NCBI RefSeq assembly: GCF_028502605.1
Contig: NC_079232.1
Location: 3,162,001-3,226,000, forward strand
Direction: 5' to 3'
Length of the DNA stretch: 64,000 nt
Origin: Trichoderma breve
Taxonomy: Eukaryota; Ascomycota; Sordariomycetes; Hypocreales; Hypocreaceae
Shown here: piece by piece, positions 31,499 to 62,800 of the stretch
Layout: each line of letters starts with the position of its first letter
Numbering within the stretch: position 1 is the stretch's first letter
The notes under the pieces: model-generated
The model's input: the letters and a program-made list of their open reading frames with translations, nothing else
The model's database searches: none
What the model was told of the DNA's origin: nothing
Program-made: the position numbers and the translations under genes

Positions 31499-33755
31499 CT
31501 ACCGGCCATTAATAACCGCATTCCAATCTGGTAAAAAAGGAATCTCTGGCATCAACAAATCCAGAGATCCAAAGACATTTTGGTTAGAACTAGCAGGGAA
31601 TTCAGAAACCCACTCGGGGAGGATCGATATCCCCGGGTCTATTGTAGGGGGGAGGATCTCGGCATTTGACGGACGCTGGCGAGTCCAGTATCTCCCACTG
31701 TGAGACTGAACCCAGACATCTCTGGTGGCCGCAGATGTCTGGGCATGCTGTCTCAGCGACCACGCCCGATGTCGAAGCTGGTTGAGAAACTTCCATATCC
31801 TGCCATGTCCGTGCTCGTCATGGACCGCCACAGGATGGCCCTGGAAATTCGGTCCACGGGGGATGAGTCCCTCGACTAGAGTCCAGGCACGATCTGCCTC
31901 GAACCCGCGAGGGTTCGGGTTGATACAGAGGCAACGTAGAACATAGGCGAGTGCGTACCACTGCGTATACATGCTGAAGAGCCATGTGAACCGCGACGCA
32001 AGGCCCTCTTTCAGCAGCACATGGCTGCTCTCCAGGCAGTCGCAGGCCAGCTTGAACGAGAGCTTGGGCGCGTCTGGTGTTGCATCGTCATCCTGCGCTT
32101 CCTTTTGCTTAGGTATAGAAATCTCCTTTCGTAACTGCAGCACGAATTCCATCTTTTTACAGGCCGTGGTGACATGCTGCGTGGCAATGTGCGGCAGATT
32201 AACCGGTGTCACAGAATTCGACCCGGGCGTGATGCCATATTTCTCTGCCATGTATTGGACTGGATCGGAGATTTTCCTCCTTCCTTTCTTTCGGGTACTA
32301 AGAAGAGCATCGCCGGAATCCTGCTGTTGCTTGTCGAGGATGGGATGAATCACGCGGCAGGCGTCGATCTGGATCAAGAAGAAGGACATCTCCGTCCAGC
32401 CACGCGATTCCGCCGGAAAATGCGTCATGTCCGGATAGATCTGGTCGTCATTCACATTCAAGGGCAGCCGTAGCCCCGTATTGGTGATATCGATTGTGGG
32501 CTGAAATCCTTGGTCCTCCGAAGCGCGCGATTCCAGCACACAAAGATGCCACCAGAGGCGAAGACGCATCTCCGACTCAAAGAGGCTCAGCTTGAGGGAG
32601 GCGCCGTCTCGGTGCAAGCCAATTGACTGGGCGAGCCGGATCACGAGTCCGTTAAGGACCCATACTGGCCGGCCAAGTTCATTTGCCCTTGAGCAAGTCT
32701 ATAGTAGCCATAGTCAGTTGAAGTAACGACAGGGTCAGTTCCAGGGCAGCCTAAGTCCTCACCACATAAATTGCGAGAGCTTGCAGGCCCGTCATATCAG
32801 GACGTTTCATGAAATCCGGCGTCACGAGAAGCCGGTCCAAGGCTGTCTGGTAGTGTTTTAGAAGGACGGGCTTCTCCCACGACAGATCGACGGGCTCGTC
32901 GCAATCGTGGTGACAAAGCGCCGTGACGGCAGCATAGTAGATGGCGAATGTCAGCGCCACCATGGAGGGCTGTGCGGACCGGGCGTCCAGAATCGTGGCC
33001 ACAACAGCAGACTGGATCGTTGGTATGTGCAAGATCTTGAGGACCGGATCGACCGACCTGACGTACACATTCCATAATCGGAGGGCGAGTTGGGCATCGG
33101 GATAGACATCCAGCAGATCAGAATCCCTGTCTGGCGGAGCAGCGGCACCTAGCTGTGTAGGAAGTCTGTGATGCGAGGCTGTATTCACCTGAAAGTGCGA
33201 AGGTGTTGTTTCTAGGCCAGGGGGTTGAGTGGGTTTGCTTCCGTCTTCTTGTAACGGTGGTTCGATATTCGAATTGTTCATTAACAGCTCCCATGTCGAT
33301 TTGGCTAAAGGCCGATCGGATGGTTGTTGCTGACTAGTTCTGATAGTATTGACATTGTCACTAATAGGTCGAGGCTGGATTGTAATCTCGGGCTCAGCAC
33401 GACCGCGACCGCGATTACTGCCACTATCGGCTTCTAATCCCGTAAGGACTCCGGTTCTCTCAACCAACAGCGATAGCAAGCTTTCCAGCCGTTCCAGACG
33501 GTTGGAGACGTCCCGGAGAGTGCAAGGTTTCTGTGCCGCGTCGGGGTCTCTTGTGGGATACACGCATGTCATGCCATGTCTCGAACAGTTTGCGCAAGGC
33601 ACGCCACGGTCACAGCGAATCTTTCTCTGGTAACATCCTTCACAGGACCGTGTCCCTCGACTAGAACTCTGGAGAACCGATTCCCGGAGTGGCGGTGCCG
33701 GCGCCGAGTCCTCTTCATCGACCGAGGCAGCAAGCCTTTTTGGTGCTCGATCCAT
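31499..33755 (-). CDS. Zn2Cys6 transcription factor with fungal_trans domain
   Basis: Two exons on the minus strand (33755-32763, 32698-31499; 64-nt intron, donor GTGAGG, acceptor CTATAG) give 730 aa. The zinc cluster is at residues 38-64 (Cys38, 41, 48, 54, 57, 64; CEGCYQRKIRCDRGVPCANC), followed by a coiled-coil-like leucine stretch (LRDVSNRLERLESLLSLL). The middle homology region includes ALAIYVVTCSRANELG formed by the splice and LRLWWHLCVLESRASEDQG, a hallmark of the fungal-specific TF domain. It is divergent from a DHA1 pump across 577 bases, and that region holds a CGG-N10-CCG site. It is likely a local regulator of the pump and perhaps of the DUF4188 gene. Confidence 0.92.
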
Positions 33756-34332
33756 GGTAATTGGCGTCTATACTAAACTGTATTCAGTACTCAGAAGCCG
33801 GAGGGGGGGGGGGGGGGGGGGAAGCAAAAAATCAACTCAAGCGGTACAATGCTGGAGATCATGTTAGCAGCAAAGCTCTTCGGCCTCCTACAGCCGAGAG
33901 GCCCCGGATTTATAGAGTCGTGGTGAGCCGTGTGGATCCTGCATGTAGTGCGGGTCTGGTTCATCGCCTTGTAGTGGCTCACTCGGTCCCCTTCGGCAGC
34001 GAGAAGTCCGAATTACACGGCACTTTCAGTTATTTGTGAGTCTGATATCGCAAGACGTACGTACTTGTTAGCTCTTCAGTCTATATAGCTCCGCAGCTCT
34101 GAGCTAATTGAGAGTCTGAGATCCCTGCATGCAGAAAATTAGAACAAGTAGACAGTATTTACCAAAGAACCGTATATTATTACCGGTACCTGCCTGTGAT
34201 TTCAAGTATGTATTTAGAATCATCCATGAGACCAACTCAGGTGTGCCACGGATAAATCGACTCAGAAGACCTCTTCTCTTCAGTTCATTGCGCATTGGAG
34301 GGAGTCTTCCGGATCTTCTTCACCTTTTCATC
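33756..34332. promoter_or_regulatory. Divergent promoter region of the 31.5-33.8 kb regulator and the DHA1 pump
   Basis: Contains a run of 19 G at 33803-33821 directly upstream of the regulator. The palindrome CTTCGG-N10-CCGAGAG has its CGG at 33881-33883 and CCG at 33894-33896. A CGG-N10-CCG spacing is the type used by Put3-like zinc-cluster dimers, so the adjacent regulator is the obvious candidate binder. Confidence 0.5.
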
Positions 34333-36053
34333 ATGTCAGACCTGGAAATGCAGAAAGATGTTGACAAAAGCGACATCAGCAAGGTCGACAGCAGCAAGGC
34401 CGATAGCAGCAAAGCCATCAACGCCACGAGCTGGAGCATGGGGATGAAGATCTATCATACTGCAATCCCCTGCTTCCTGGCCTTTTTAATGTATGTAAAT
34501 ATGTTTTACACACACGAGTGAGCTTCCGCTGACCAAGTCATGATCAAACTGCAGAACATTCTCCGCATCTGTCACAGTTCCTGCTACCTCCGCCCTCATG
34601 ATCGAGTTCGCCGTCAGCCGCACTGTCGCGATCCTCTCTGAAACCATGTACATGCTGGGGCTGGCCTTTGGGCCCATGATCATGGCGCCCCTGTCCGAGT
34701 TTATTGGGCGCCGGTGGCTGTACATTGCAACCTCATCAAGTATAATTGCCTTTGCAGGCGGTGCTGGAGCGGCACGGAACTTGGCCACTTATTTGATCTG
34801 CCGCTTTTTCTGCGGATGCCTGGGATCAGCAGGCGTGGCCATCGGCGCTGGAACAATCCTCGATGTTTGGGGGGTCGGCACCAAGGCGGGAGCCATGACA
34901 AGCCTCCTGTTTATCTGCGGCCCGTTCTTCGGCCCCTCCCTCGGCCCGCTGGTCGGGGCATATATCATGGACGAATACGATGGCGATTGGCGATGGACGC
35001 AGTGGGTTGTGGCCTTGATCGGTGCGCCCATCTTCATCTTGATTCTCTTTATGAAGGAGACGTCCGACTCGCGGGTCCAAGCCACGGCCAAACACTCGGG
35101 TCGGTTCAGTACTGTGCGGCTCGCCTTGTCGATGCTCAAGGCCGCCGTGTTCCGCTCTATGACCATGCTGACCACTGAGGCCATCACCTTTTCGCTGACT
35201 CTATACACGGGATACGCATACGCGGTCATCTTTAGCTACTTCGCAAGCGCCAACTACGTCTACACCCTCGACTACGGCTTTGACTCCCGCCATATTGGTC
35301 TCTCCTTTATTAGCGTGCTCATCGGCTATCTTCTAGCTTGTGTTACCTACCTGGTGATCGAGAAGACTCTCTATGCCCGCGCTGCCCGGCAAGCCCCCAA
35401 CGGTCGTCCAGCTCCAGAACATCGATTGTACAGCGCCATGGCCGGTAGCATTTTCTTGCCCATTGGGCTATTCTGGTATGTTTCGATCTCTTGCCGCCAG
35501 AGCGGTCCGTTGCGTTAAGGAGCTAACATTCTTTCTCGTAGGTACGCATGGGCAGCCAAGCCAGGCGGCCACTGGGCAGTAGTAGTGGCGAGTGGCATCC
35601 CATTTGGTCTTGGTGCTTTTGTTCTCTTTGTGAGCATTTTATATCTCCCTTGTTTAAAGCATATATACCACAAATGTCTAACGAGCCCCCCTTTCTTCAT
35701 AGCTTTCCTCTATGATATACCTTGTCGAATCATATGGAGCTGGTGCAGCCGCATCTGGTATGTTTCTCCTTTTTAATTGGATTCTTATCTTGCGCTTGTT
35801 TTGCGTTTATAGTTTAGAAACTCATTGTGCAACAGCTATCGCCGCGAATGGATCCTTTCGATACCTCCTCGGAGCGGTGTTCCCTCTGTTCACAATTCAG
35901 ATGTACGAGAAGCTCGGCATTCACTGGGCGGGGAGCGTGTTTGCCTTTCTGTCATTAGGGCTCCTCCCTATCCCGTGGATCCTCTTTAAATTCGGCCATC
36001 ACCTCCGGAAGAACAGCAGATTTATAGCATCGTCGCAAGTGGAGGAGGAGTAG
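34333..36053 (+). CDS. MFS efflux pump, DHA1 family
   Basis: Five exons (34333-34490, 34555-35475, 35542-35629, 35703-35757, 35836-36053) give 479 aa; all four introns (64, 66, 73 and 78 nt) have canonical ends. The start at 34333 begins a hydrophilic tail containing a SKVDSSKADSSKA repeat. Motif A appears as PLSEFIGRRWLYI between TM2 and TM3, with GPFFGPSLGPLVGAYI (motif C-like) in TM5. The last splice, placed at AACAG/CT, gives GAAASGAIAANGSFRYLLGAVFPLF, the usual TM11 of polyamine/drug DHA1 carriers. It probably exports a toxic or secondary compound from the cell. The divergent zinc-cluster gene probably controls it. Confidence 0.9.
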
Positions 36054-36259
36054 GGAGATAGTTGTCTCAGATGTGAAATTAGTATATAATTGATCTAAAG
36101 TGTACACCGTTCTATTGTTACATGATATATTAGGCTATAGTAATAAATTAAATATCCGTTTTAAATTGCCGTTTGAGTATTCTACTTTTAGATGCCTCAT
36201 TGAGAGTATACGGGTGGACCTAAGCATGTTTATACGGTTTGTCCCGTTCTCTGGTTAGA

Positions 36260-37758
36260 TCATTGAGGGGTAGTATCAAGAAGGACCTTGTGAAATGCTT
36301 CTGCAACATATTCCACATTGTGTTCTGTCACTATGGGCATATTAACTTCAGTACAGACGAGCTCTACAAGATTTCAATACTCACAGCCTGTCATGGATAT
36401 TCTTCCCGAAGGCAGGAGATATACATGGTACTCTTCCCGCAATATGCGGATTTGATTCGGTTGCAAACTGGTTATTGAGAACATCCCAATCTCTGTAGTG
36501 TTAGCGATGCCCAGCGAGTGCATCTTAAAGCGCAGGTAACTCACATCTGTCAATATATGATCCCATTGGCCTGGTGTTTGACGTTTTCGAAGTCCGTCTA
36601 CTAGCATTTGTCGCATCGTCCTCATGCGATCACTCATGTGGAGTAAATCGTGTTGCCACTGCGCCTTCAGGTCTTTATTTCCAAGCACCTTTGCCACAAT
36701 TTTGGAGCCATTTATAGGACAAGTAGTAATCTCAGCCCGAGATAGACGTGTGAGCATGTTGACGACTTTTGTTCCACTGTCGTCTGTCCGGCACACGACG
36801 TGAAGCGCGCCTGTACGCTCCCCGTAAAGACCAAAGTTTTTAGAGAAGGATTGCGCCACGAACATTTCTAACGAAGTGTTTCGGAAGAAATATCTTATGG
36901 GCCAAGCATCTTCATCCAAATCTCCAGTGGCAAGCCCCTGGCTGCGTGCGAATTAGCTCTTGAGCTGCTGACATTACGGGTGAGTCTGCGTACTAGGCAA
37001 GATCAAAGAATGGAATAAGCCTCTTCTGTTCGCAAATACTGGCAATGGCCCTCCACTGTTCTTTTGTGAAGTCTCGTCCCGTGGGATTATGTGCGCAGCC
37101 ATGCAAAATTACAACATCACCTTCTCCAGCCATGGAAGACAGGGTAGACATGGCGCCTTCAAAATCGAGATCCAATATCTCTTTATTGAAGTAGGCATAC
37201 TTCTGACGTTTGATATCGGGATCTGCAAGTTTCCAAATTTCCTCGTGATTAATCCAAGTGGGATCTGAGATCCAGACTGTTCGCGGGCGGATAGTTTTTG
37301 CTAAAAACAGAGCACCCAGATGATTTGCCCCGGTGCCCGCAATGGTCTGGATGCTTGCGATAGTATTTGCATCCTCAGGTGTTGTATCGAATACGAGTTT
37401 TTGGGCACTGTCAAGTAGTTCAGCATGGCCCAGAATAGGTAAATGTTCGTGGTCGGCAGTCGGGTCATTAAGTAACTCTTGTTTGGCCTGGATATGATTA
37501 GTAGAAGTTTTTTTTTGCTAAAGCGTTGGTGAGATATGTTACCTTTCGTACCGATGGCAAGATCCAGGGCCTTGCATCCTCATCGCGATAGAAGCCAGGA
37601 CTAAGATCAACTTTCAACGGTGAACGATCTGCCCTGTATGCATCAATCAAGGCGAAGGCGGCGTCTGGTGGTGCTTCGGAAAGACTGGCCAAGTGAGACA
37701 TTGCTGCGAGATACGAAAGCGGCTCCACAGGCAATACATAATCAGATGTGTTCTGCAT
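36260..37758 (-). CDS. Class I PLP aminotransferase (aspartate/aromatic aminotransferase-like)
   Basis: Four exons on the minus strand (37758-37543, 37487-36994, 36941-36385, 36330-36260) give 445 aa. The splices restore PSVRKAKQELL, FFDLAYQGLATGDLDED and GRISMTGLTEHNVEYVA, all standard for eukaryotic aspartate aminotransferases. The PLP-binding Lys is K271 in SFSKNFGLYGERTG. HGCAHNPTGRDF provides the Asn contact, and IAGTGANHLGALFLAK the phosphate-side loop. Length is somewhat above the 400-430 aa norm; no mitochondrial presequence is evident, so it is probably cytosolic. It moves an amino group from an amino acid to a 2-oxo acid. It shares a promoter region with the double RraA-type aldolase and lies in the five-gene cluster up to 44764, so it probably makes the 2-oxo acid that the aldolases cleave. 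Confidence 0.92.
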
Positions 37759-38136
37759 GGTTCAGTATTGACCTGCATTTATATCCATCTTAAATCGTAG
37801 ATCATGTGGCTGGTCGTTCATCTCGCCGTATCGTGGTGTTTCGGCAACTTGGCTAGTTCGCCGATATCTAAGGCAGGCCGTATACGGAGAGCTTCAGAAG
37901 CCAGGCACGGTGATGGTGTCTGATCCCCGAGATAGAGAGTCGTGCGGTTTTACGTAGGACGCTCTCTTAATAAAAATGATCATATGGAAGCTCATTAAAC
38001 CCCCGTTCTTTCTCGTTCTATTATAGAATTGGTTTATTCATCCGGCTATCTTCTCATACCTGGGCCACATATCAGCCATCCCATCTTTCGCCTCTTTCTT
38101 TGCTTCAATTGTTCATTAACCAATACGACCTATACA
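37759..38136. promoter_or_regulatory. Divergent promoter of aminotransferase and double RraA gene
   Basis: The 378-base region holds TCGG-N16-CCGA at 37841-37864, about 83 bases from the aminotransferase start and 273 from the aldolase start. A second perfect palindrome, CCGTATACGG, lies at 37878-37887. Both are of the kind bound by Zn2Cys6 dimers. Confidence 0.6.
37841..37864. promoter_or_regulatory. Candidate operator, TCGG-N16-CCGA (copy 1)
   Basis: CGG at 37842-37844 and CCG at 37861-37863 stand 16 bases apart. The same arrangement, with CG before the right half, recurs in the two other promoter regions of this cluster. Confidence 0.65.
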
Positions 38137-39522
38137 ATGAGTCAAACCAGTGTATTGGATCGACTTTGGGCTCTCGATACTAATACGGTATCTGACGCCT
38201 TGGATTCCCTTAACCTCAAAGGGGCCACATTTGGCTTACAACCGCTATGGGACTGCCCCAAGATCGTAGGACGCGCCAGTACAGTCAAGGTTGGCCCAAA
38301 GACGGAGTCAACTCTCACTGCCCATCTCATTACTCCAGTGATAGATGCGGTCACTTCAGATGATCGAATTCTTGTCATCTCTGGTGGCACGGATGGTATC
38401 TCTTGCTGGGGCGACATCATTGCTAATGCCTCGAAAATGAAGCGCATTCGTGGAACCATCATCGATGGCATGAGCCGTGATATAGATGGAAGCCGTGAAA
38501 TCGGCTATCCAGTTTACGGCCGAGGCATCACCATGATTAGCGCGCGCAATCGATTGGTACAAATTGAGTCGGGCAAGCCTCTGCAGATGCGAAGTGTTAC
38601 AGTCCATCAAGACGACTATGTGATCGCCGACAGGTGTGGCACTGTGTTCATACCGGCAGAGCAAATCGAAGAGGTCCTGGATTTGGGTGAGAAGATTGAC
38701 CGTCGTCAGAGGTTTATGGTCCATGCTGTTCGTGCAGGCCAGCCTGTGTCAGAAGTGATGCACGACAAGCAATTCGAAAATATCAGCGACATGGATGCCG
38801 CAAACGTGCCATCAGCGGCAGTGAAAACATTCTACCCGCAGAATCCCAAGAAAGCCAGTATCGAAGACCAAGAACTGGTAGCGCTATTCAAGGACTTGGA
38901 TACTCCCGCAGTTTCTGACGCGCTTGATAGACTTGGAATCCCGGGGCAGGCTCTCAATATCATGCCTTTGGTGAATTATAAGAAGGTAACTGTTGGGCCT
39001 GCCTTTACCGTACGTTACGTGCCTGCAAGCGATCCGCCCGGGAATGTTGGAAACTTCATTGATGACGCTGCCATCGGTGATGTTGTAGTCATCGACAACG
39101 GTGGACGCACCGACTGTACCGTTTGGGGCGATATCATGACGCAGTACGCCGGTTTACGAGGCATTGCTGGGTCTGTCATTGATGGTGTGTGCCGCGATGT
39201 TAACCGTGCCATCACCGATGACTACCCTCTTTTCACGGCTGGACGTTGGATGCGGACTGGCAAAGATCGGGTTCAAATAGGAAGCATCAACGAGCCAATC
39301 GGCATTGGCAAAGTACGTGTCCAACCTCGGGATATTGTTGTTGCCGATGCCAATGGTGTGGTTGTTGTTCCACGAGATCGTGCCCAAGAGGTGGCCGAGA
39401 TCGCGCAGGGAATCGAGAAGAGTGAAGCTAGTATCCGAGAACTGATTGCCGGTGGACTCACAATTGCAGTAGCGAGAGAAAGGCTGGGGTATCATACCTT
39501 GCAACGCAAAGAACGAGACTGA
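38137..39522 (+). CDS. Two fused RraA-type (HMG/CHA aldolase-like) domains
   Basis: An intronless gene of 461 aa; ATG 38137 is preferred because it precedes the conserved N-end. Domain 1 (about 10-205) and domain 2 (about 250-440) are both RraA / class II 4-hydroxy-4-methyl-2-oxoglutarate aldolase folds. Each starts with a TNTVSDALD or TPAVSDALD helix, continues with a WGDI helix, and ends with the metal/substrate motif (IIDGMSRDI and VIDGVCRDV) in which Arg and Asp are intact. Family members cleave 4-hydroxy-2-oxo diacids to pyruvate plus a second 2-oxo acid or oxaloacetate with a divalent metal; some only bind RNase E, which fungi lack. Having two apparently complete sites in one chain is unusual, as RraA aldolases are normally single-domain trimers or hexamers. 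It is probably cytosolic and works after the divergent aminotransferase. Confidence 0.88.
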   Translation: MSQTSVLDRLWALDTNTVSDALDSLNLKGATFGLQPLWDCPKIVGRASTVKVGPKTESTLTAHLITPVIDAVTSDDRILVISGGTDGISCWGDIIANASKMKRIRGTIIDGMSRDIDGSREIGYPVYGRGITMISARNRLVQIESGKPLQMRSVTVHQDDYVIADRCGTVFIPAEQIEEVLDLGEKIDRRQRFMVHAVRAGQPVSEVMHDKQFENISDMDAANVPSAAVKTFYPQNPKKASIEDQELVALFKDLDTPAVSDALDRLGIPGQALNIMPLVNYKKVTVGPAFTVRYVPASDPPGNVGNFIDDAAIGDVVVIDNGGRTDCTVWGDIMTQYAGLRGIAGSVIDGVCRDVNRAITDDYPLFTAGRWMRTGKDRVQIGSINEPIGIGKVRVQPRDIVVADANGVVVVPRDRAQEVAEIAQGIEKSEASIRELIAGGLTIAVARERLGYHTLQRKERD

Positions 39523-40015
39523 ATCAGTAGAAAGCGGTCCAATTGATATACGGGTAGCCCTTCATATACAACGACGCTGTTTCATAACAGCTGATGATCT
39601 AAGTTGCAATTTATTAGACGGGTATGTAGTTTAATTGATACAGTTATCCAAAGAGCTCGAAGGGCATTGTCTGAGCATTAGTAAACACCTTGTGTGAAAT
39701 AGTAATATACGCCCTAAGCTGAGACTACATGTACATAAATGTATGTACATGTACGCGGGCAACTCACATCTGCCGGCCTCTGGTCGCCACCTAACAGGCC
39801 AGATGCATCATACTTCGTGGTGTCCAACATATATCGTTTCTCGTAATAGAAAAAGTCATTGAACTCTTTCACCTAGATAAAGAACGTCTTCTTGTACGTG
39901 CCCACGTCAACGATGCATCGGCAAAAGTTGGTTTAATACAAGCTGTCAAGATGTGAACTGATAGGCTATATCCTGGCCATTTATACGACATATCCCCTGC
40001 TTCTCATGGAAGCAA
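39523..40015. other. 3' intergenic between convergent aldolase genes, with hairpin
   Basis: TACATGTACAT at 39726-39736 pairs with ATGTACATGTA at 39743-39753 across a 6-base loop. Its place between two convergent genes fits a transcript-end structure. No gene was seen. Confidence 0.5.
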
Positions 40016-40970
40016 TCAGGAACGTGCAGTCAAAAGCTCAGCCGTATACCAGTTTTGAATAGCCCGTATATCATAACTCAATGCTACGGTATCGAATACT
40101 TTCAAATGCTCCCTGCTCGACGCTCCGTCATTCGATAGTCGACCAACCCATTTGCCCTGTTTTCGCGCCGCCGACACAATCTTTTCGATAGCATCGACGA
40201 ACTCTGGCTCATCGCCTTTGGCAGGCACATATCCAAGGATTGACAGAGCCAGGTCATTTGGTCCAATAAAAACCATATCTTGCGAGGCGTTAGCACACTG
40301 GTTCTTAGGATCCAAGTTGGCTGCAGCACAAACCGACTCCTGGTACAGCACAAATAGCGTCTACGTTCTCGACCCCCCTTTTTGATTCAATTTGAATACA
40401 AGTGATGAGTGTTTCATTAGCCGTTTTTAGGTACGTTGGGATATCGATGCCATGAGTGATGGCTGGAAACGCTGAGCCTTGGCCTCGAAGCCCTTGTGGC
40501 GGGAATTTTGAGTTGCTCACAACGGTAATCGCCTCTTCGGCGGTATTTATTTGGGGGACAACGATTCCGCTAGTTATTGTCAGTAGTGAAATGAGAGGGT
40601 TCGTGTTATGTACTTACTGTGCTCCAGCGTCCAAAGCTCTTTTAATCAAGTCCGCGTGAGTCATCCTGAGACGGACGAGTGGTGACACTCCAAGGGCAGC
40701 GATAGCAGCAGTAGAACTATGCATGGAGTCGTCACTGATATGGCCATGCTCGCAATCAATGATGATGCCCTTTACAACCGTTAATAAAAAGCATGTATAC
40801 AAAGGGTGAGCGGCACTTACATCGACTCCAGTTTGGGCTACAATTTGGGCTGTGCGAAAAGACGGAAGCCCCAAAAATGTCATGATAGGCTTTGAGTTGG
40901 CTCGAAGAGCATTGAGCAGACGCAATCGTGGGTTTTGAATTAAAGTCGTCATGGCTGATGCGTAGGACAT
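40016..40970 (-). CDS. HpcH/HpaI-family aldolase
   Basis: Four exons on the minus strand (40970-40821, 40769-40618, 40569-40334, 40278-40016) give 266 aa. The splices restore TGVDGIIIDCEHGHISD, DAGAHGIVVPQINTAEEA and CAVPGVDMVFIGPNDLA, which are the family's successive signatures. The catalytic base region is the DCEHG motif, with metal ligands expected from the Glu of IQIESKRGVENV and the Asp of the following GVD loop. These class II aldolases cleave 4-hydroxy-2-oxo acids to pyruvate and an aldehyde. A Met six codons in (40952) is an alternative start. It probably acts beside the double RraA protein, either on the same compound or on its product. Its promoter faces that of the cluster regulator. 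Confidence 0.9.
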
Positions 40971-41540
40971 TACTGTGGGTAAGTTTGACGACGCGCCAAT
41001 CCAAAAGAAACAATGGACAATATTGAGCTATAGCGAAGTGAGCTGCAAAAGTAGCTGCGAAGTAATTATTGCAGTAGGTTTCACAATAAGTAGCAAGCAG
41101 ATTCTACAAAGGTGTAACGATCATGTACTGGTGAGGTGTCTATTGTGGTATTGGAAACTGCTGGGCAACTCTCAGTCAAATGGACGCTACGAGCTCCTAG
41201 TGAGAAGAATGGAAGCCGTGCGAATCAGGGCGCATAATTCAAGTCAGCATTTCCAGACTACATAACTTCCGACTACAAGCTCGCATGTGCTACTATCTCA
41301 TCACCTTTGGACTTGGCCATGGGCGCTGAGAGGGTTGCCGGTTGTCAGATCTCGGTCTGGGGGCCGATTCGCCGAGTGCTGACCCGCTCCTGTGTTGGTG
41401 CCGTAATAACTAGCCCGGTCCGTATCGCGGGTAAAGATGTCATTGCCCGAACCTAGTTTGAGGCAGCCAACTCACTTCTGTAAACTTGCGTATTGCTCTT
41501 CCAACTGCTTGGATCGAATGTATCCCGGGCACTGGAAGCG
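40971..41540. promoter_or_regulatory. Divergent promoter of HpcH/HpaI aldolase and cluster regulator
   Basis: Holds the second TCGG-N16-CCGA element (41352-41375), about 165 bases before the regulator start and 380 before the aldolase start. A CCG-N5-CGG element is at 41420-41430 and shares the CCGTAT start with the palindrome at 37878. The arrangement would let the regulator control itself. Confidence 0.6.
41352..41375. promoter_or_regulatory. Candidate operator, TCGG-N16-CCGA (copy 2)
   Basis: CGG at 41353-41355 and CCG at 41372-41374, 16 bases apart; the outer bases extend the palindrome to CTCGG...CCGAG. Confidence 0.65.
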
Positions 41541-43835
41541 ATGGCCGATGCATTGGACGAGCTGGATCAACACCGCTCGGCTGGTACTCCAGCAGCGGCG
41601 AAAGCCCCATACGCGCCTCGGGCAAGACCAACTGCGTAGGTCAAATCTGTACTGTCAGAGAAATTCATGTTAATGACGGTCTTTACTAATCCCCGGGATG
41701 CCAATAGCTGCCGTAAATGTCACTTGCGAAGAGTGAAATGCTCAGGAGGGAAGCCTTGTAATAACTGTAGACGAGCCAATGAGGCAGCGGAATGTGTTTA
41801 TCCTCAGAAGGATAGATTGGTAAAAGTTAGCCAGCAGTAAGTTGAACCCGTCGTTACAGATTTACCAGGGTAACTTAACAGGGATTGATGCTAACCTGAC
41901 AGATACATCGATGACTTGATTGCAGAGAATCAGGCACTTCGAAGTCGAGCATCTTCGCCTAGGCCACGTCATGGTTCACAGCATTTGAGCGGTGGAGGGG
42001 CAGATAAAATCACAGAGCAAACCGTCGCAGTGCCATCGGCACAAGCTCCAGAGTTGACTAGTACTCCTTGGTTCATTGATATGGCCGTCCCCCATACTCC
42101 CATCCTACTCTCCGAGGCCTCAGATTCGGCTTTTGCGACCCGTTTCCGTCAGGCCATGTCTAGCTCCGAACACTGCCATTTTCCTCGTGTAAGTTATCCA
42201 GCAGAGGACCAAATCCTGGCCCTAGGCGACGCTGCTTGCGAGTGGCCTAGCCCGCCGCAAGCGCGTCTCCTAGTGAATGCTGCATTGAAGTGTCTTGGGC
42301 GTTGGCACCACATTGTCCGAAGCAGTGTTATCTTTGAAGAGCTTGAGAAGCTTTTAAAGGATCCCAGAGCAGTGGGGTTCCTGGTCCAGAGCAAATTCTG
42401 GGCATTGTTTGCAATTGGAAAGACATATTCGACTCGAACGTCAGCTACTCCTAGAGCTTTCCCAGGTCTAGAATACTTTGCCAAAGCGTCAAAGGTTCTC
42501 CGCGTCATCAGTGAGCGCCCAACAGTTGAAATGGTCGAGACGTGTCTTCTTTTGGTAAAACATTCCTCTTAGTACAAATATGCCTGCACCCATGCACTGA
42601 CTGCTTCTCACAGTCTTACTATTCACTTTTTCTAAATAGACGACACTCTGCTTATAGCCTGGCTGGCTCCGCAGTGCGTACTGCTATTATCATGGGACTC
42701 CACCTGAATGTCCCCGAGCCTCTTCTCACGGATCAGTTTGCACGTGAACATAGAGTCCGAGTTTGGTGGACTGCCTATACGTTCGATAGAATGTGGGCCA
42801 CGAAGCTGGGATATCCGGTGGCTGTTCAGGACAGTGATATCGATCTCGATCTTCCATCAAATAAGCTCTCACATAGCGACTTTCCGGATTGCTCCTATTC
42901 TGTAGCTATGATAGGCCTAGCAAGGATATCTGGAACTATACTAAACTCGATCTACGGCAAGAGTTCTCAGAAGACGGCACTATCTCAACGAGTTCATGAT
43001 AGCTTGTCCGCACTGCGACAATGGCTCAAAGATCTTCCGCCATCGCTGCAGATTGACCCAACGAAAAGCAATATGGCAGAACAACAGGCAGAATCTTTAC
43101 ATTTACGGTTCAATCAAGTAAGCACTTTCTCTCCCTATGATGATTGGTGATATGCATGGGTAATAATATCTTCAGCTCGTGATCCTTGCCACCCGCCCAA
43201 TTTTGCTCCACGTCTTTCGGACACGCTTCAAGGTCCTGGAAACGGGAGACGAGCCGGACATTCCTGGTTCAGCAAGTACCCTCTCAGATGCCTGCGTACG
43301 ATGTGCGAGACACTCGTACCAGATTCTCACCGACTCTTGGATCAACGGAAGGTTTATGATGTTTGACTACTTTGATACACAATATCTTTTCACAGCGGCA
43401 ACAATCTTGGCGATCTCGAGTCTGTTGAACCAAAACGACAGTCAAAGTGATGGGGAGCTTTTTGACACGGCGGCACAATTTCTCTCACAACTGAAGGAAA
43501 ATGGGAATTTCGTAGCTGCCGAGTTTAAACAACATGTGGATGCCATGAACGTTTTCATTGCATCTGAAGAGGCTAAGTTGCAGGAGAGACGCGGAGATAA
43601 CACATCAACACAGCCTCAAAACAATAGAGGCATCACAGGCGGTGGCTCTGCCTCGCTGCTTACATCGCAAGATGTGGCTGCAGACATGGTACTATCAGAA
43701 CCATTTTTTCATGACCTGCTCGAACAGTCGATTCCTGATCTAAATTTTATCGACGCCTCGTTGAGTATAGATGGCACACAGGGACTCTACTGGCCGATGA
43801 TGACCTCCGGAACCGGTTCCGACACGTTTTTCTAA
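41541..43835 (+). CDS. Zn2Cys6 transcription factor, probable cluster regulator
   Basis: Five exons (41541-41635, 41708-41836, 41903-42554, 42614-43117, 43176-43835) give 679 aa. The start is the first ATG of the frame (MADALDELDQ). The first intron lies just before the zinc cluster, and splicing gives PTACRKCHLRRVKC. The six cysteines are 33, 36, 43, 49, 52 and 61, followed by a short linker and a coiled-coil start (QQYIDDLIAENQALRSRA). The fungal-specific TF domain includes SLFLNRRHSAYSLAGSAVRTAIIMGLHL and RVRVWWTAYTFDRMWATKLG. A dimer of this kind would bind paired CGG triplets; the CGG-N16-CCG sites in the three cluster promoters, including its own, are the natural targets. Binding is inferred from position only. 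Confidence 0.92.
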
Positions 43836-43882
43836 GGCTATAATAGACAAATTATTTTACTATATATACATTGGTTCTTCGG

Positions 43883-44764
43883 CTACTGCTCGAGTAGTTG
43901 CCCCTTGCTCGTACCATCAGATTGCTGATCGTTGGCTCTCTGAATAAGATCCTGAATAGCAGCCCACATAGCCACAGGATTAGAATACATTGGGAAATGG
44001 CCCGCACTGGGAATCTCGGCCAGCTCAACTCCAGCGGCTTCCAGCTTAGGGAGATACGAAAGACTCGCATGCTGTTCGCCAAACATGAAAGCCTTTATGA
44101 ATGGAAGGGCTAAAAACTTGGCTAGTAAACTGCCGCTGTCGGATAAATGCACCATGGATTCGAAGATTCCTCTGATAGCACCAACTTGAGCTCTCTGACG
44201 AATTGAAGCCGCATACAATGCGGCGGAGTAGAACGGAGACTGGCGGCAGCGGAGGATGAAATCGTTCAGAAACTCGTCCATATCTTCGCTGTGCCAGTCA
44301 AATATTTGTCGGCTGATGAAGCAATCCTCAGGCGCAAGATTTCCTTTAATATTGACGAAGCTGCGGATCGCCTCGGGTTTTCGGTGAGCCAGTTCAAGGG
44401 CAGTTAGACCACCCATTGAATGCCCTACAATGTGAAATTCGAGGATTTGGAAATGATGCAGCACCGCCTCTGCCGTTTTGACGAGAAAGCCGATGTTCAC
44501 TTTGGACAGATCTTCACACCAGCTTTCGCCGCACCCGGGAGCATCGTACGCAAGAAACGACTGTGCAGAGAAACCGGCATGGAACCGAATATCAACATAG
44601 TCTTCCTTAGAGCTGCCCCATCCGTGTAGAAATAGGATAGGTATCGAGGTAGAATTGCCGAGACGTCGGAAGAGGGCCAAGTCGATTGACGTACCATCAA
44701 TTTCTAGTCGGAGGCGCTCATGCGTAACGCCCAAGTTGGGCGATTCGGGTGTAATGTCGGACAT
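43883..44764 (-). CDS. Alpha/beta hydrolase (meta-cleavage-hydrolase / MhpC-like)
   Basis: An intronless gene of 293 aa on the minus strand. The oxyanion-loop HGWG is at 47-50, nucleophile elbow GHSMG at 114-118 (Ser116), and catalytic His256 in SAGHFPMYSNP. The acid is probably in the MFGEQHASL loop (about 227-235), where a Glu stands near the place of the usual Asp. No signal peptide is visible. The family includes C-C bond hydrolases of ring-cleavage products, lactonases and esterases. It ends 47 bases from the end of the regulator gene, and its promoter contains the third TCGG-N16-CCGA site, tying it to the aminotransferase/aldolase cluster. It may open an ester or lactone, or cleave a C-C bond, before transamination or aldol cleavage. 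Confidence 0.88.
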   Translation of the reverse strand: MSDITPESPNLGVTHERLRLEIDGTSIDLALFRRLGNSTSIPILFLHGWGSSKEDYVDIRFHAGFSAQSFLAYDAPGCGESWCEDLSKVNIGFLVKTAEAVLHHFQILEFHIVGHSMGGLTALELAHRKPEAIRSFVNIKGNLAPEDCFISRQIFDWHSEDMDEFLNDFILRCRQSPFYSAALYAASIRQRAQVGAIRGIFESMVHLSDSGSLLAKFLALPFIKAFMFGEQHASLSYLPKLEAAGVELAEIPSAGHFPMYSNPVAMWAAIQDLIQRANDQQSDGTSKGQLLEQ

Positions 44765-45342
44765 TCTGAAACCTTGTTTCTACTTCTTGAATACATGGAT
44801 TGTTTCTGCGTCATGATCCTTCTCTTGTCATGGAGACGTAAACCAAGCTTTATACATGTAGAATTCCGGCCGTGTGGGTCCGGGGTGATGCCTTTCGGCG
44901 AAGTGGTTATCACGCCGAACAGCATTCAAGGCCGGGTAACATTGCTTCGGGGACAGCACACAAGTCAAACTTGGAACTCAATGCTCTGAAAAAGACAGCC
45001 CACGGTACATATTCATGTATTGCATCATCACCACGTCTAATAAACCTGTATATTAGTAACAGACTGTAGCTTAAGGAAAGCAGCAGCAGTATAACGCCCT
45101 CCAATTAAGAAGACACAGATAGGGCAAACATTTTGTCAACTTAAAAATGAGATGAAAGGAAACGCACAAAAGAAATATATATATATATAAGACGTGGTGC
45201 AGCAATATAACTTATCAGTAGCCTTTCTCCCAGAAATATCTCTCTCAACATAGCTCTATTCTAGACTTATAGTACCGACATCGCCCTTCCATTTGACCCC
45301 GTCGTCCTTGCGATTAACCAATGCATTTCTGCTAAAGCGATG
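44765..45342. promoter_or_regulatory. Promoter region of the cluster hydrolase
   Basis: Between the hydrolase start and the 3' end of the DUF3632 gene, so its upstream elements belong to the hydrolase alone. Besides the operator at 44895-44918 there is a TA microsatellite at about 45175-45190. Confidence 0.5.
44895..44918. promoter_or_regulatory. Candidate operator, TCGG-N16-CCGA (copy 3)
   Basis: CGG at 44896-44898 and CCG at 44915-44917, 16 bases apart. Here the halves extend to a perfect 7-base inverted repeat, TTCGGCG (44894-44900) and CGCCGAA (44913-44919). It stands about 130 bases upstream of the hydrolase start. Confidence 0.7.
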
Positions 45343-46464
45343 CTAAATCTTAACCCAATTTCCTACAGCCTCCAGTTCTCTCTGAACCCGTGTGTCCTTG
45401 TCCTTAACCTTTCCCAACAGTTGTACCATGGTAGTCAAGGCGAGCCTAGTAAGGGTGTCTTCCCCCGCTTGTTCTGCTTCTTCTTTGATCTCCTCCAGTC
45501 TTTTCAACCAATACATCCATCGCCAGGGACTAAATGCCGCTGATGATCTGCGACCTAGCTCCGATGTAGCGAAGGTAGTTTTGCCTTGCCTGACGGTATC
45601 GGGGTTGTTCCACAACTTGTCTGACAGTTGGATGATTTTATTGTGTGCGACAACCAGCCAAAACTGCGCAGCCGGAAGTAAAGCGGCAATCGTGAGCTCA
45701 CGTAAATCCCTATGAGGATCCTCGTCACTCTGATCGTTGAAGCTGCCCAATGGACGAACAGTTTCAAAAGTGTCCTTAAAGACTAACAAAGCAATTTCGC
45801 ATAGATTGTCGTCTACCCCGGTGGACGCGAGCTTAGCCAGAAAGCAAGAGAAGTCGACGCGTTGGTCAGTACTCATAGTTGCACAATCCTTTACCCAGAA
45901 GTCCGTCATGTCCGCAGTGAAGAAAGGCAGACCTTCCCAAATAATGCCAGCGGATGTTGTGGCAATCTCAAGCTTGTTGTCATTGCTATCGCCGTCATTA
46001 CCGTTGTGGCTGTTTTGTGCTCGGCGCGTCAAATTCCCTTGCCCATGGAGTTGGACGATATGCAGGACCCATGTATCTTGTTCAGGGCTTGTATGGGAAA
46101 TATTTTTGCCCGCTTGATAGTAGACGTACCAAAGACACTGTAGCTGATACTTGAGCTCCTCAGCGGACTTCGCGTCGCGAGAATACGACTCATTGATGAA
46201 AGATATCTTGCTGTCAGCGAATCCCTGGAGACCATCGAAGTCATTCTGTTGAATTGCCTCCTCTATTGACTTTCGATCGTCTTCGGCAAGCCATAGTTGC
46301 CGGCCGATGTAATCATCCGCGACGGGTCTATCTTTAACTTGCATGATAAAGTTGCTGCAACTCTGCGGTACTGTGATCGCTGACAAATGAGTGTCGCCGT
46401 AATAAACGTTGAGAGAGTAGTAGGAGATTGTGAGAGGGGAATGGAGGACTTGGGAATTACTCAT
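45343..46464 (-). CDS. DUF3632-family fungal protein
   Basis: An intronless gene of 373 aa on the minus strand. It has the pattern of the DUF3632 family: an N-terminal helical part ending FADSKISFINESY, then a central WEGLPFFTADMTDFWVKD, FSCFLAKLASTGV, and a closing SPWRWMYWLKRLEEIKEEAEQAGED. A low-complexity insert rich in Asn and Asp (about 150-165) separates the halves. The family is widespread in Pezizomycotina and has no known function; no catalytic motif, membrane segment or signal peptide is visible. It marks the right border of the cluster, and its promoter lacks the shared operator as far as I can see. Confidence 0.8.
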   Translation of the reverse strand: MSNSQVLHSPLTISYYSLNVYYGDTHLSAITVPQSCSNFIMQVKDRPVADDYIGRQLWLAEDDRKSIEEAIQQNDFDGLQGFADSKISFINESYSRDAKSAEELKYQLQCLWYVYYQAGKNISHTSPEQDTWVLHIVQLHGQGNLTRRAQNSHNGNDGDSNDNKLEIATTSAGIIWEGLPFFTADMTDFWVKDCATMSTDQRVDFSCFLAKLASTGVDDNLCEIALLVFKDTFETVRPLGSFNDQSDEDPHRDLRELTIAALLPAAQFWLVVAHNKIIQLSDKLWNNPDTVRQGKTTFATSELGRRSSAAFSPWRWMYWLKRLEEIKEEAEQAGEDTLTRLALTTMVQLLGKVKDKDTRVQRELEAVGNWVKI

Positions 46465-59848: not shown

Positions 59849-62800
59849 AAATGCTCTTGTCTTTCACCCCTGCTCCACCCGAATCTTGATTGGCCACCGG
59901 AGGGAACGACATTCTCAAAAACTCTACATGGTCTCCACGCACATATACAAAGCTACTTACATTTGATTTTGATACCCCGCCATTGTTTCTGGTTAATTTC
60001 TCTTTAAACTCCTGAAATGCAAAAGCTTAGCCTTTGGGCTCTGATCAGCATTGCAAACTCATATATATCTGAGCGACTATGTTTCTGCTGTGGTGGAGAG
60101 CGAGCGAACAAAGAAGGGCCCTTATAACGGTACTAAGGGCTTCGCCCCAGACAAGGTCCTCTGAACATACGACTGTGACCGTTCACCTCATGTATGGGGT
60201 TTATTGAATACGAGAGAGAGTTGTGGAGGTGTGCTATTTCGCTCTTAATGCCTCGTTACATGATATAACTTTTTGTTTTTTCTTTCTTTCTTGATATTCG
60301 TTCGTTGGGACGGGGTGGCGGTACTGGAGTTGGTGACTGCTTTCGTTTTATATCGGGTGGCACGGGCGTTGGAACACAAAAGGGCCTAATTTTTGAGCAA
60401 GTCCTATTGATTGAGATGATACATGATCTGTCCTTTTTTTTGCGAATTATTGGGAAGAATTGCGGAACGCGAACATGCTAAAGCGGTCATGGGACGGCGT
60501 CACGAAGGGATGAGGTGGGCGCTGTGGGCATGGAAGGTTTTGCGTACATGGAGTTAGAATCTGTATCGGATGGCAAATTAAACCAAGGTAGAGTAAAGAG
60601 AAACGAAATTTGATATCATGTTAGTAAACAAACAAGAGAGGAGCTGAAAGAATCCATGATGAAGACTGCAAGCTACGAGTACTAGCTTAGACCTTGGTAA
60701 CCTTGATATCGGCGCTTAAGCATGTGTCACGAGGAGCGAGGCAGCGCTGAGATGGCGATGCACATGAAAGATGTAACCCAATGCACATGGCGGACATGGA
60801 AAACGCAGGGCCATGTAAGTGAAGATGGTGGGATGGAACGTATAGTACATTGGAACAAGGACAAAGGGTATGGAGATGGAGACGTGTCGAAATGCTTGGC
60901 CACATGTTAGCCTTGTTCTATTGTCTCTCTGGGGTATCGCCTTGGGCTTAGGCCTAGGCCCCTCGGAAGCAAGAAGCGCCAGCCGGCCGGGGGAAGGGAA
61001 CCTTAAATCAAACGTGTGAGATCTGGGCGCCGAGAGACGGGGTAGGTGAGGAGGAGGGCTTGGTTTTTAGGTAACGTGCTTTGAACGGTTGTGTGGAACT
61101 CTGGGATTGTTGCTTTCTGGAAGCTGGAGTTGATAAGTGAAAACGGATCGGCAAGGGGAGTGAGTGAGTGCTTGGGAGATAAGCTGTGAGGATTGAGAGG
61201 ATAGATAGAGATGATGATCCATGCATGGACAATCTATTTGTTATCTAACCTATGTTCGATCTATCTTATGGGTTGGAATCGACAATTACAGCAGCGTTTA
61301 CGAGTGGTTTCCTATCATTTGCTATCTTCTATCTACCTGTATCTGCTGGATGGTGCGTTCATTTCGAGTGGCGTGTACGTAATGTACAAAAAAGTATACT
61401 CGTGTGTGTTTGTTGGTCTTTTGAGGCGGATGTAACATTTCTTTAGAACTACTAGTTTCTTGGCTATATGGACCAGATCCATATGTGAACGGAGCGGCAG
61501 AGGGTGTGTACAGTACAGGAATTAGATTGTTAGATAACCCAGGTTGACGGCTACCGAGGACCCCGTACGGAGCCTCTCTGGGTACTTGTACTTGTATACA
61601 CTCGCACTGCTACAGTATGGATATGCTTGTACATGGAGATACCGTAAATCACGGGCCACGCCACATGATAACCGTACAGTAGCGCGTGCATGTGTAGGAT
61701 CACTTTCCCTGGCTCGGAGATGCAGAGCTTGCACTGGTTAGAATCTGGGTGGTGGGTGGTGGGTGGCGCTGGAGAGGTGGGTATTGCGACAGAAAATCGC
61801 GGCTAGGCAAGTTCTGGGAGTTTTTGGTGAAGATGCTGTTGACAGAGGGAGATTGATGCCCAAAAGAAGAAGAGAGTGAAAGATTGGATGAGAGTATTAG
61901 ATGGAATATAACCAAGGGATTTGTGGTTTGCTGTTCTTTATGTTGGTGATGAGCCTCGGTTGCTTGGACTTATTACAGGTACCTCTACACGCAATTGCGG
62001 CTACTGCTATTACTCCATACAGGTCCTTAGTCGTACCACTGCAGCTTTCTCCAAACATGTTGGTATGGGGAGAGCTGGGGCCCCGCGATAGCAATGAGTG
62101 CGGAGGGTACAATCCTCTGTTGGCCTCGAATTTAGTAATTAGCTGGTTCAACTGTCACGAGCCAGCTCTTGGCGCAGCGATGCCCAACAGGAAGGGAGGG
62201 GCTAATCTCTCTCGCTTGCATGCAGTTGCATATACTTGTAACATTGGCTCATCCCGTCAACTGACAGGAGGACAAGCCTCTAGCGGTTACTGACGAACCG
62301 AGCTGAGAATGAATTCCCTGATCGCGGAGCGAGATCTCGGATTCATGGTCGTTGGAAATTACGGATCACAGAAGCTCGGTTCTGGAAGTCGTAAAAGTTA
62401 GTCAGCTGAGAGAGGGACCCGGCAAGGCTCCCTAACCCCTATGACTACTTAACTCGTAGATGGCTTGATGGAGAGAGACGGGACGAGGGAACGTTACATG
62501 GATGGAGTAGACCCAACTTTAAAAACGATCTCCTTTGCTTCTTGTGCCACAGAAAAGTCAATGGCGCTTCGGCTTCTCGCAGGCGGGTGACCCATTTGCC
62601 CTTGGCAAGCGTGCTGTGGCGGCGTTGGTGCGATCGAGAAGCGCCAGAGAAGGATTTCGGAGGTGCTGGTGGGTGATGCCAGACATTTCACTCTCACGTT
62701 CGACTAGCTCGCCATTGTACTGTAGTATTAGTGTCCGTATCGCAACGAGAATAGCATGTCCTAGACACGAGGACAGTGGGAAGATACCGTAGATGGTGGT

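What the first reader, a model, noticed from the sequence alone, without database searches (positions are those of the whole stretch)
37841..44918. One palindrome, TCGG-N16-CCGA, in every promoter of a five-gene cluster
The element occurs once in each of three intergenic regions: aminotransferase/double-RraA (37841-37864), HpcH-aldolase/regulator (41352-41375) and alpha/beta hydrolase (44895-44918). In all three the right half is preceded by CG, and the spacer is exactly 16. Chance for one such 8-base pattern is about 1 in 65,000 positions, and these regions total about 1.5 kb. The cluster contains a Zn2Cys6 protein, a class known to bind paired CGG triplets. A 16-base spacer is longer than the well-known Gal4 (11), Put3 (10) and Ppr1 (6) spacings. 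The inference is a self-controlled regulon read by the protein at 41541-43835.
Basis: partly seen in the sequence, partly recalled or inferred. Interest (0 to 1): 0.87.

Follow-up and report, generated by a model that had tools for sequence, protein, structure and literature searches.

The report
Shared promoter switch of fungal cluster
The three promoter regions of a five-gene fungal cluster carry the same spaced DNA palindrome, most likely the docking site by which the cluster's own regulator switches the genes together; this is a convincing new example of a familiar kind of control, not yet tested at the bench.

Summary
TCGG-N16-CCGA occurs exactly three times in the window, at the stated places, once in each intergenic promoter region of the cluster. 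Alone it is weaker than claimed: the genome (38.55 Mb, Trichoderma harzianum group) has 365 copies, so about 0.8 such trios would arise by chance. Further results make it convincing. With site 3 read on the minus strand, all three share TCGG-N12-TTCGCCGA: 5 copies genome-wide, 3 of them here; N11 and N13 give 5 and 6 scattered copies. In the three regions CGG-N16-CCG occurs 5 times; the other inverted spacers 0-30 together give 8. Of 200,000 GC-matched trios from this genome, 11 do as well at any inverted spacer, 540 if direct and everted pairs also count.

Best reading: operator of a local catabolic regulon, probably read by the cluster's own Zn2Cys6 protein (41541-43835). Against it: its closest solved DNA-binding domain, with equal linker length, is Put3, an N10 reader. 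A 16-bp gap is not unprecedented (Oaf1/Pip2; Mca1). Conservation in other fungi could not be tested.

The parts
37841..37864 (+). Main site 1 TCGG-N12-TTCGCCGA, between aminotransferase (-) and double RraA (+)
37908..37929 (+). Second-tier site, CGG-N16-CCG followed by A, same promoter region
   Evidence: support is modest (P about 0.034 for the three second-tier sites resembling the main arm)
41352..41375 (+). Main site 2 TCGG-N12-TTCGCCGA, between HpcH aldolase (-) and regulator (+)
41428..41449 (+). Second-tier site, CGG-N16-CCG followed by A, same promoter region
41526..41547 (+). Further CGG-N16-CCG; overlaps the regulator's start codon, so probably fortuitous
44895..44918 (-). Main site 3 TCGG-N12-TTCGCCGA (read on the minus strand), upstream of the alpha/beta hydrolase
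36374..37758 (-). Aspartate-type aminotransferase (Aminotran_1_2), three exons modelled; the last exon probably holds one more short intron
38137..39522 (+). Double RraA-like aldolase, 461 aa, no intron
40016..40970 (-). HpcH/HpaI-type aldolase, four exons, 266 aa
41541..43835 (+). Zn2Cys6 regulator, five exons, 679 aa (Zn_clus, Fungal_trans); proposed reader of the sites
43883..44764 (-). Alpha/beta hydrolase, 293 aa

Best explanation
The element is the operator of a pathway-specific regulon. Shown: an inverted CGG pair with a fixed 16-bp gap and an extended TTCGCCGA arm lies in each of the three promoter regions that serve the five genes, with a looser second copy in two of them, and no CGG-N16-CCG lies in the neighbouring promoters. 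Inferred: a Zn2Cys6 dimer, most likely the cluster's own product at 41541-43835, sits on it with one strong and one weak half-site contact; each copy in a divergent promoter serves both genes; the copy before the regulator gives autoregulation; a metabolite of the pathway switches the bound activator on. Inferred pathway: a transaminase makes a 2-oxo dicarboxylic acid, RraA-type and HpcH-type aldolases cleave it to pyruvate-like products, and the hydrolase opens or releases a precursor.
For: Sites exact and unique in the window; 12-base form 5 times in 38.55 Mb, 3 here, the other two inside stop-to-stop frames of 436 and 303 aa; a gap one base shorter or longer gives 5 and 6 scattered copies. 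Spacer 16 stands out among inverted spacers 0-30 in the three regions (5 against 8 for the other thirty together); 11 of 200,000 GC-matched trios do as well at any inverted spacer. CGG-N12-WTSSCCGA, the consensus drawn afterwards from the six cluster sites, has 115 matches in the genome, control 124, and 6 lie in this 7.1 kb (post hoc). In the orientation with the common TTCG, that arm points to RraA, regulator or hydrolase in all three main sites. The three regions show no wider similarity to each other, so the sites are not remnants of a copied promoter. The regulator's zinc cluster and domain are intact, and the stretch from Cys6 to the coil is gap-free in 17 aligned sequences, the query and 16 of the 120 listed homologues. 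Records of equal contig length hold regulator, RraA and hydrolase together in Trichoderma guizhouense and Cladobotryum mycophilum, and regulator plus RraA in T. compactum (equal length taken as the same record). Bacterial relatives of the double RraA have, within about 6 kb, a transaminase (66 of 80 loci), the hydrolase (51 of 80) and a LysR gene (72 of 80).
Against: No binding, expression or orthologous promoter data. The regulator's DNA-binding domain is Put3-like with Put3's linker length, which would suggest N10, not N16; no CGG-N10-CCG is shared by the three regions. Genome-wide the motif is at chance level in total (12-base form 5 against a reversed-pattern control of 9; 10-base form 73 against 108). 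If pairs of any orientation count, 540 of 200,000 matched trios do as well. The direction of the asymmetric consensus is not forced: another orientation of the three sites scores slightly higher (20.3 against 19.9 bits), and likewise for the six (13.7 against 13.1). The second-tier sites are weakly supported.
Confidence: 0.62

Rival explanations
1. The element is a real operator, but another protein reads it: the neighbouring zinc-cluster regulator at 31499-33755, or an unlinked zinc-cluster protein.
For: The cluster's own regulator looks Put3-like in linker length. The neighbour has a zinc-cluster domain and, by eye, a longer stretch before its coiled coil. The genome holds many related regulators (58 stretches match the cluster's regulator, its own exons included).
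Against: The neighbour's own divergent promoter lacks CGG-N16-CCG and holds TCGG-N10-CCGA instead (one found, 0.66 expected). In-cluster regulators usually control their cluster (general knowledge), and the element also lies before the cluster's own regulator.
Confidence: 0.22
2. Chance: three unrelated palindromes that happen to fall in three promoters.
For: The 8-base palindrome alone has 365 copies and would give about 0.8 such trios in the genome; window shuffles reach 3 copies in 3 of 100; no genome-wide excess of any form tested; pairs of any orientation do as well in 540 of 200,000 matched trios.
Against: Shared spacer bases: 55 of 16,215 control triples as alike, 9 with four or more matching bases next to an arm; spacer-16 excess in exactly these regions; among the 100 of 115 places listed for the six-site consensus, no other group of three or more within 7 kb and two pairs within 2 kb.
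Confidence: 0.09
3. The regulator binds single TTCGCCGA/TCGGCGAA half-sites, and the far TCGG is incidental.
For: TTCGCCGA is the most constant part; three of the four copies in the window are these. Independent binding to single sites exists, e.g. Pho7 (PMC5559640, passages).
Against: The far TCGG is at exactly N12 in all three, and second-tier sites keep the N16 CGG pair while their near arm varies.
Confidence: 0.07

Closest known systems
Oleate response element read by Oaf1/Pip2 (S. cerevisiae), CGGN3TN(A/R)N8-12CCG (PMC2784042, passages)
   Same: Inverted CGG pair with a long gap; 14-18 includes 16; in that paper the SPS19 element drives a reporter equally in both orientations; zinc-cluster dimer.
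   Different: Inner TN(A/R) is absent from the three main sites; 2 of the 6 cluster sites fit it on some strand. The oleate consensus allows a range of gaps; here only 16 is enriched.
Mca1 element of fission yeast, TCGGCG-N13-TCGGCG (PMC6080790, passages)
   Same: 16 bp between CGG triplets; TCGGCG half-site, which is also in the strong arm here (TTCGCCGA read backwards is TCGGCGAA).
   Different: Direct repeat there, inverted here; only one of the two half-sites here is extended; Mca1 has an unusually large linker.
Put3 (proline utilisation activator; 1ajy, 1zme)
   Same: Best match of the regulator's DNA-binding domain in the PDB (E 8e-7), same Cys6-to-VSxxY distance.
   Different: Put3 reads CGG-N10-CCG (recalled; also stated in the finding); no shared N10 pair here. 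Two more residues between Cys5 and Cys6 here.
Bacterial loci with paired RraA genes, a transaminase, the same hydrolase and a LysR gene (Burkholderia, Pseudomonas and others, L073-L152)
   Same: Same enzyme classes around the RraA pair; hydrolase 53-59% identical in the 25 best of 51 loci.

Membership tests
Zn2Cys6 operator (paired CGG triplets) | Two CGG triplets in a fixed orientation and spacing at several target promoters | tested here: met
   inverted, gap 16, in all three regions
Zn2Cys6 operator (paired CGG triplets) | Enriched over matched sequence of the same genome | tested here: met
   11 of 200,000 trios, inverted; 540 of 200,000, any orientation; spacer scan. No excess genome-wide
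Zn2Cys6 operator (paired CGG triplets) | Bound by a zinc-cluster protein in vitro or in vivo | not testable with these tools
   No binding data
Zn2Cys6 operator (paired CGG triplets) | Conserved before orthologous genes | not testable with these tools
   The window's genome has no relatives in the store; no other fungal DNA was available to search here
Zn2Cys6 regulator | Six-cysteine binuclear cluster | tested here: met
   C-x2-C-x6-C-x5-C-x2-C-x8-C, Zn_clus 35 bits
Zn2Cys6 regulator | Fungal_trans middle homology region | tested here: met
   86 bits
Zn2Cys6 regulator | Dimer through a coiled coil after the linker | tested here: inconclusive
   Short conserved stretch in the right place; no structure or dimer model was made
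Put3-type N10 reader | CGG-N10-CCG in the target promoters | tested here: not met
   counts 0, 0, 1 in the three regions
Oaf1/Pip2 oleate element | CGGN3TNRN8-12CCG | tested here: not met
   0 of 3 main sites, 2 of 6 in all

The most novel reading that the evidence does not exclude
A Put3-like zinc-cluster activator, with a linker no longer than Put3's, reads an inverted pair 16 bp apart with an extended TCGGCGAA half-site, so that linker length does not set the gap in this widespread regulator subfamily; with it, fungi have put under zinc-cluster control an enzyme set that bacteria keep beside LysR genes.
Probability: 0.25. Interest if true: 0.6.

Novelty: new member of a known kind. Interest (0 to 1): 0.42.

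Why it matters
If right, it gives a binding-site code for a regulator subfamily with homologues across Trichoderma, Fusarium, Colletotrichum and Aspergillus, named there only in general terms, and a handle on a catabolic pathway whose substrate is unknown to me. It would also test whether linker length sets half-site spacing in zinc-cluster proteins. The way to show it (extra shared bases, spacer scan, genome-matched trios) can be reused for other clusters.

Tried and rejected
The 8-base palindrome as sufficient evidence: rejected, 365 copies in the genome. A wider regulon: one search gave 73 matches of CGG-N12-TTCGCCG (control 108), of which the first 30 had loci, 3 of those being this cluster. 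One search printed 31 rows (27 of these loci, the two loci that two of the 27 repeat, and L064 and L065): 18 lie in stop-to-stop frames of 300 aa or more, 3 have another CGG-N16-CCG within 250 bp; I found no second target cluster, but most places were not examined. Two near-perfect palindromes (L064, L065) were looked at: no link to the pathway seen in their open frames. A second locus with an aminotransferase paralogue and an HpcH paralogue (L072): it has two CGG-N16-CCG, one inside a methyltransferase frame (5129) and one at 515 whose setting I did not work out; neither has the TTCGCCGA arm. Copied promoters: the three regions share no match longer than 10 bp and have no direct repeats inside. 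Paralogues of the double RraA in this genome: none. RraA relatives in viral contigs: none. No structure prediction was run. Literature: none of the spacer spellings is in the library; the listings named no paper on this cluster (searches matched 195 and 7,104 papers, of which 10 and 12 were listed).
Full report
What is there. The window lies in a 38.55 Mb fungal genome, contig 1 from 3,162,001. The regulator is 95% identical to one named for Trichoderma guizhouense and the double RraA 93-94% to those of T. guizhouense, T. camerunense and T. lentiforme, so the organism belongs to the T. harzianum group (inference). Five genes, modelled by hand with short introns, lie between 36374 and 44764: aminotransferase (-), double RraA (+), HpcH aldolase (-), Zn2Cys6 regulator (+), alpha/beta hydrolase (-). 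Pfam agrees for all five. The aminotransferase aligns to cytosolic aspartate aminotransferase over some 400 residues; the residues that hold the second carboxylate seem kept (by eye in that alignment, residue roles recalled).

The sites. TCGG-N16-CCGA is found three times and only at the stated places. Reading the third on the minus strand, all share TCGG-N12-TTCGCCGA and one further C in the gap. In the three intergenic regions (378, 570 and 578 bp) the inverted pair CGG-N16-CCG occurs 2, 2 and 1 times; for the thirty other gaps from 0 to 30 the total over all three regions is 8. One more copy overlaps the regulator's start codon. In the whole window there are 18 CGG-N16-CCG (shuffle mean 9.4; 0 of 100 shuffles reach 18). 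The next one on the left lies at 33685, inside the neighbouring regulator's frame, and on the right at 60964; one more lies inside the regulator gene at 42127. A direct CGG pair with gap 14 also occurs once in each region.

Is it chance? Genome-wide TCGG-N16-CCGA has 365 copies (control, the pattern read backwards, 774); with 365, a trio in 7.1 kb is expected about 0.8 times. So the palindrome alone is not enough. The 12-base form has 5 copies (control 9), three of them here; with gaps N11 and N13 there are 5 and 6 copies, none near another. Since the four extra bases were seen afterwards, I tested them against 47 other TCGG-N16-CCGA sites (the places on contig 1 that one search listed, less the three): 55 of 16,215 triples have equally alike spacers, 9 have four or more shared bases next to an arm. 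In that test an orientation other than the one with the common TTCG scores slightly more, so the asymmetry is suggestive only. Against 38 background CGG-N16-CCG sites, 0 of 3000 random triples match the main three, which were however chosen for their TCGG and CCGA; 3 of 3000 random sixes match all six, 27 of 3000 fives match the five without the start-codon copy; the second-tier sites alone resemble the strong arm with P about 0.034. Matched trios came from 210 kb of the same genome: 51 loci already held, partly chosen by motif searches, the motif masked, some overlapping, plus the rest of the window. All three regions hit with five or more sites at some inverted gap occurred in 11 of 200,000 draws, and five or more at gap 16 in none. 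A repeat with another seed gave 10, and 540 when direct and everted pairs were allowed as well, mostly direct ones, which are common in CGG-rich runs (my reading). The draws reuse the same pieces, so these are rough frequencies.

What reads it. The regulator in the cluster has the full zinc cluster and the middle homology region. Seventeen aligned sequences, the query and 16 homologues of 44-95% identity chosen from 120 listed, keep the stretch from the sixth cysteine to the coil without gaps. Its nearest solved relative is Put3, and the distance from Cys6 to the Tyr of VSxxY is 14 residues in both. Linkers are said to set gap and orientation in this family (PMC9000951 and PMC6080790, passages), so a Put3-length linker would predict N10. 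This is the main result against the simple reading. The neighbouring zinc-cluster gene at 31499-33755 beside an MFS gene is the first rival reader; its own promoter has TCGG-N10-CCGA at 33880 (expected 0.66, so possibly chance).

Known kinds. Gaps of 14-18 in inverted pairs are known for the oleate element, which works in both orientations (PMC2784042, passages); 16 bp between TCGGCG direct repeats is known for Mca1. The element here is a new member of this kind.

Function of the cluster. Contig lengths in the protein listings put regulator, RraA and hydrolase on one record of 842,797 bases (names given: T. guizhouense for two, Trichoderma cf. simile for the hydrolase group) and on one of 7,644,443 in Cladobotryum (a large contig, so weak), and regulator with RraA on 286,605 in T. 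compactum; RraA and hydrolase share contig lengths 3,405,423, 428,672, 8,212,542, 131,087, 120,025 and 30,591, and in Pseudogymnoascus the locus tags are VE00_09151 and VE00_09148. Equal length is taken as the same record, which is an inference; only the 120 best of each listing were seen. The bacterial scan kept the best 80 of 172 related loci. By script, 71 of 80 have the two RraA halves as separate neighbouring genes, 4 were classed as fused (at least one of these, L121, is one gene hit twice), 4 had another order and 1 lacked a half; a transaminase is in 66, the hydrolase in 51, a LysR gene in 72, a third RraA in 55, all six together in 37. None of the 80 has a hit to the fungal aminotransferase or to HpcH at E 1e-8. 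So the fungal protein looks like a fusion of two bacterial neighbours, and the enzyme set is functional kin (inference; I read the gene order in a few loci, L073 and L152 above all). The substrate is unknown; a 4-substituted glutamate or aspartate-like amino acid is my guess from enzyme classes.

Noticed in passing
window 38137-39522; L073-L152: The fungal double RraA corresponds to two separate adjacent genes in most bacterial relatives (71 of 80 loci), with 64-75% identity in the best segments; it looks like a gene fusion, possibly after transfer between kingdoms.
   Followed up: partly
L073, L152 and other bacterial loci: A recurrent bacterial neighbourhood: LysR, two to three RraA genes, aspartate-type transaminase, alpha/beta hydrolase (all six in 37 of 80 loci); in L073 next to an L-asparagine-permease-like gene. 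Substrate unknown to me.
   Followed up: partly
L072 (genome C6:240200-248200): A second locus in the same genome pairs an aminotransferase paralogue (45-56% identical) with an HpcH paralogue and an O-methyltransferase.
   Followed up: partly
window 31499-36054: A divergent pair, Zn2Cys6 regulator (-) and MFS transporter (+), with TCGG-N10-CCGA at 33880-33897 between them.
   Followed up: partly
window 36374-36941: The last modelled aminotransferase exon carries nearly 20 extra residues against aspartate aminotransferases, near a GTGAGT; probably one more intron.
   Followed up: partly
window 45343-46464: Minus-strand DUF3632 gene to the right of the cluster, with no CGG-N16-CCG between its start and 60964.
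   Followed up: no
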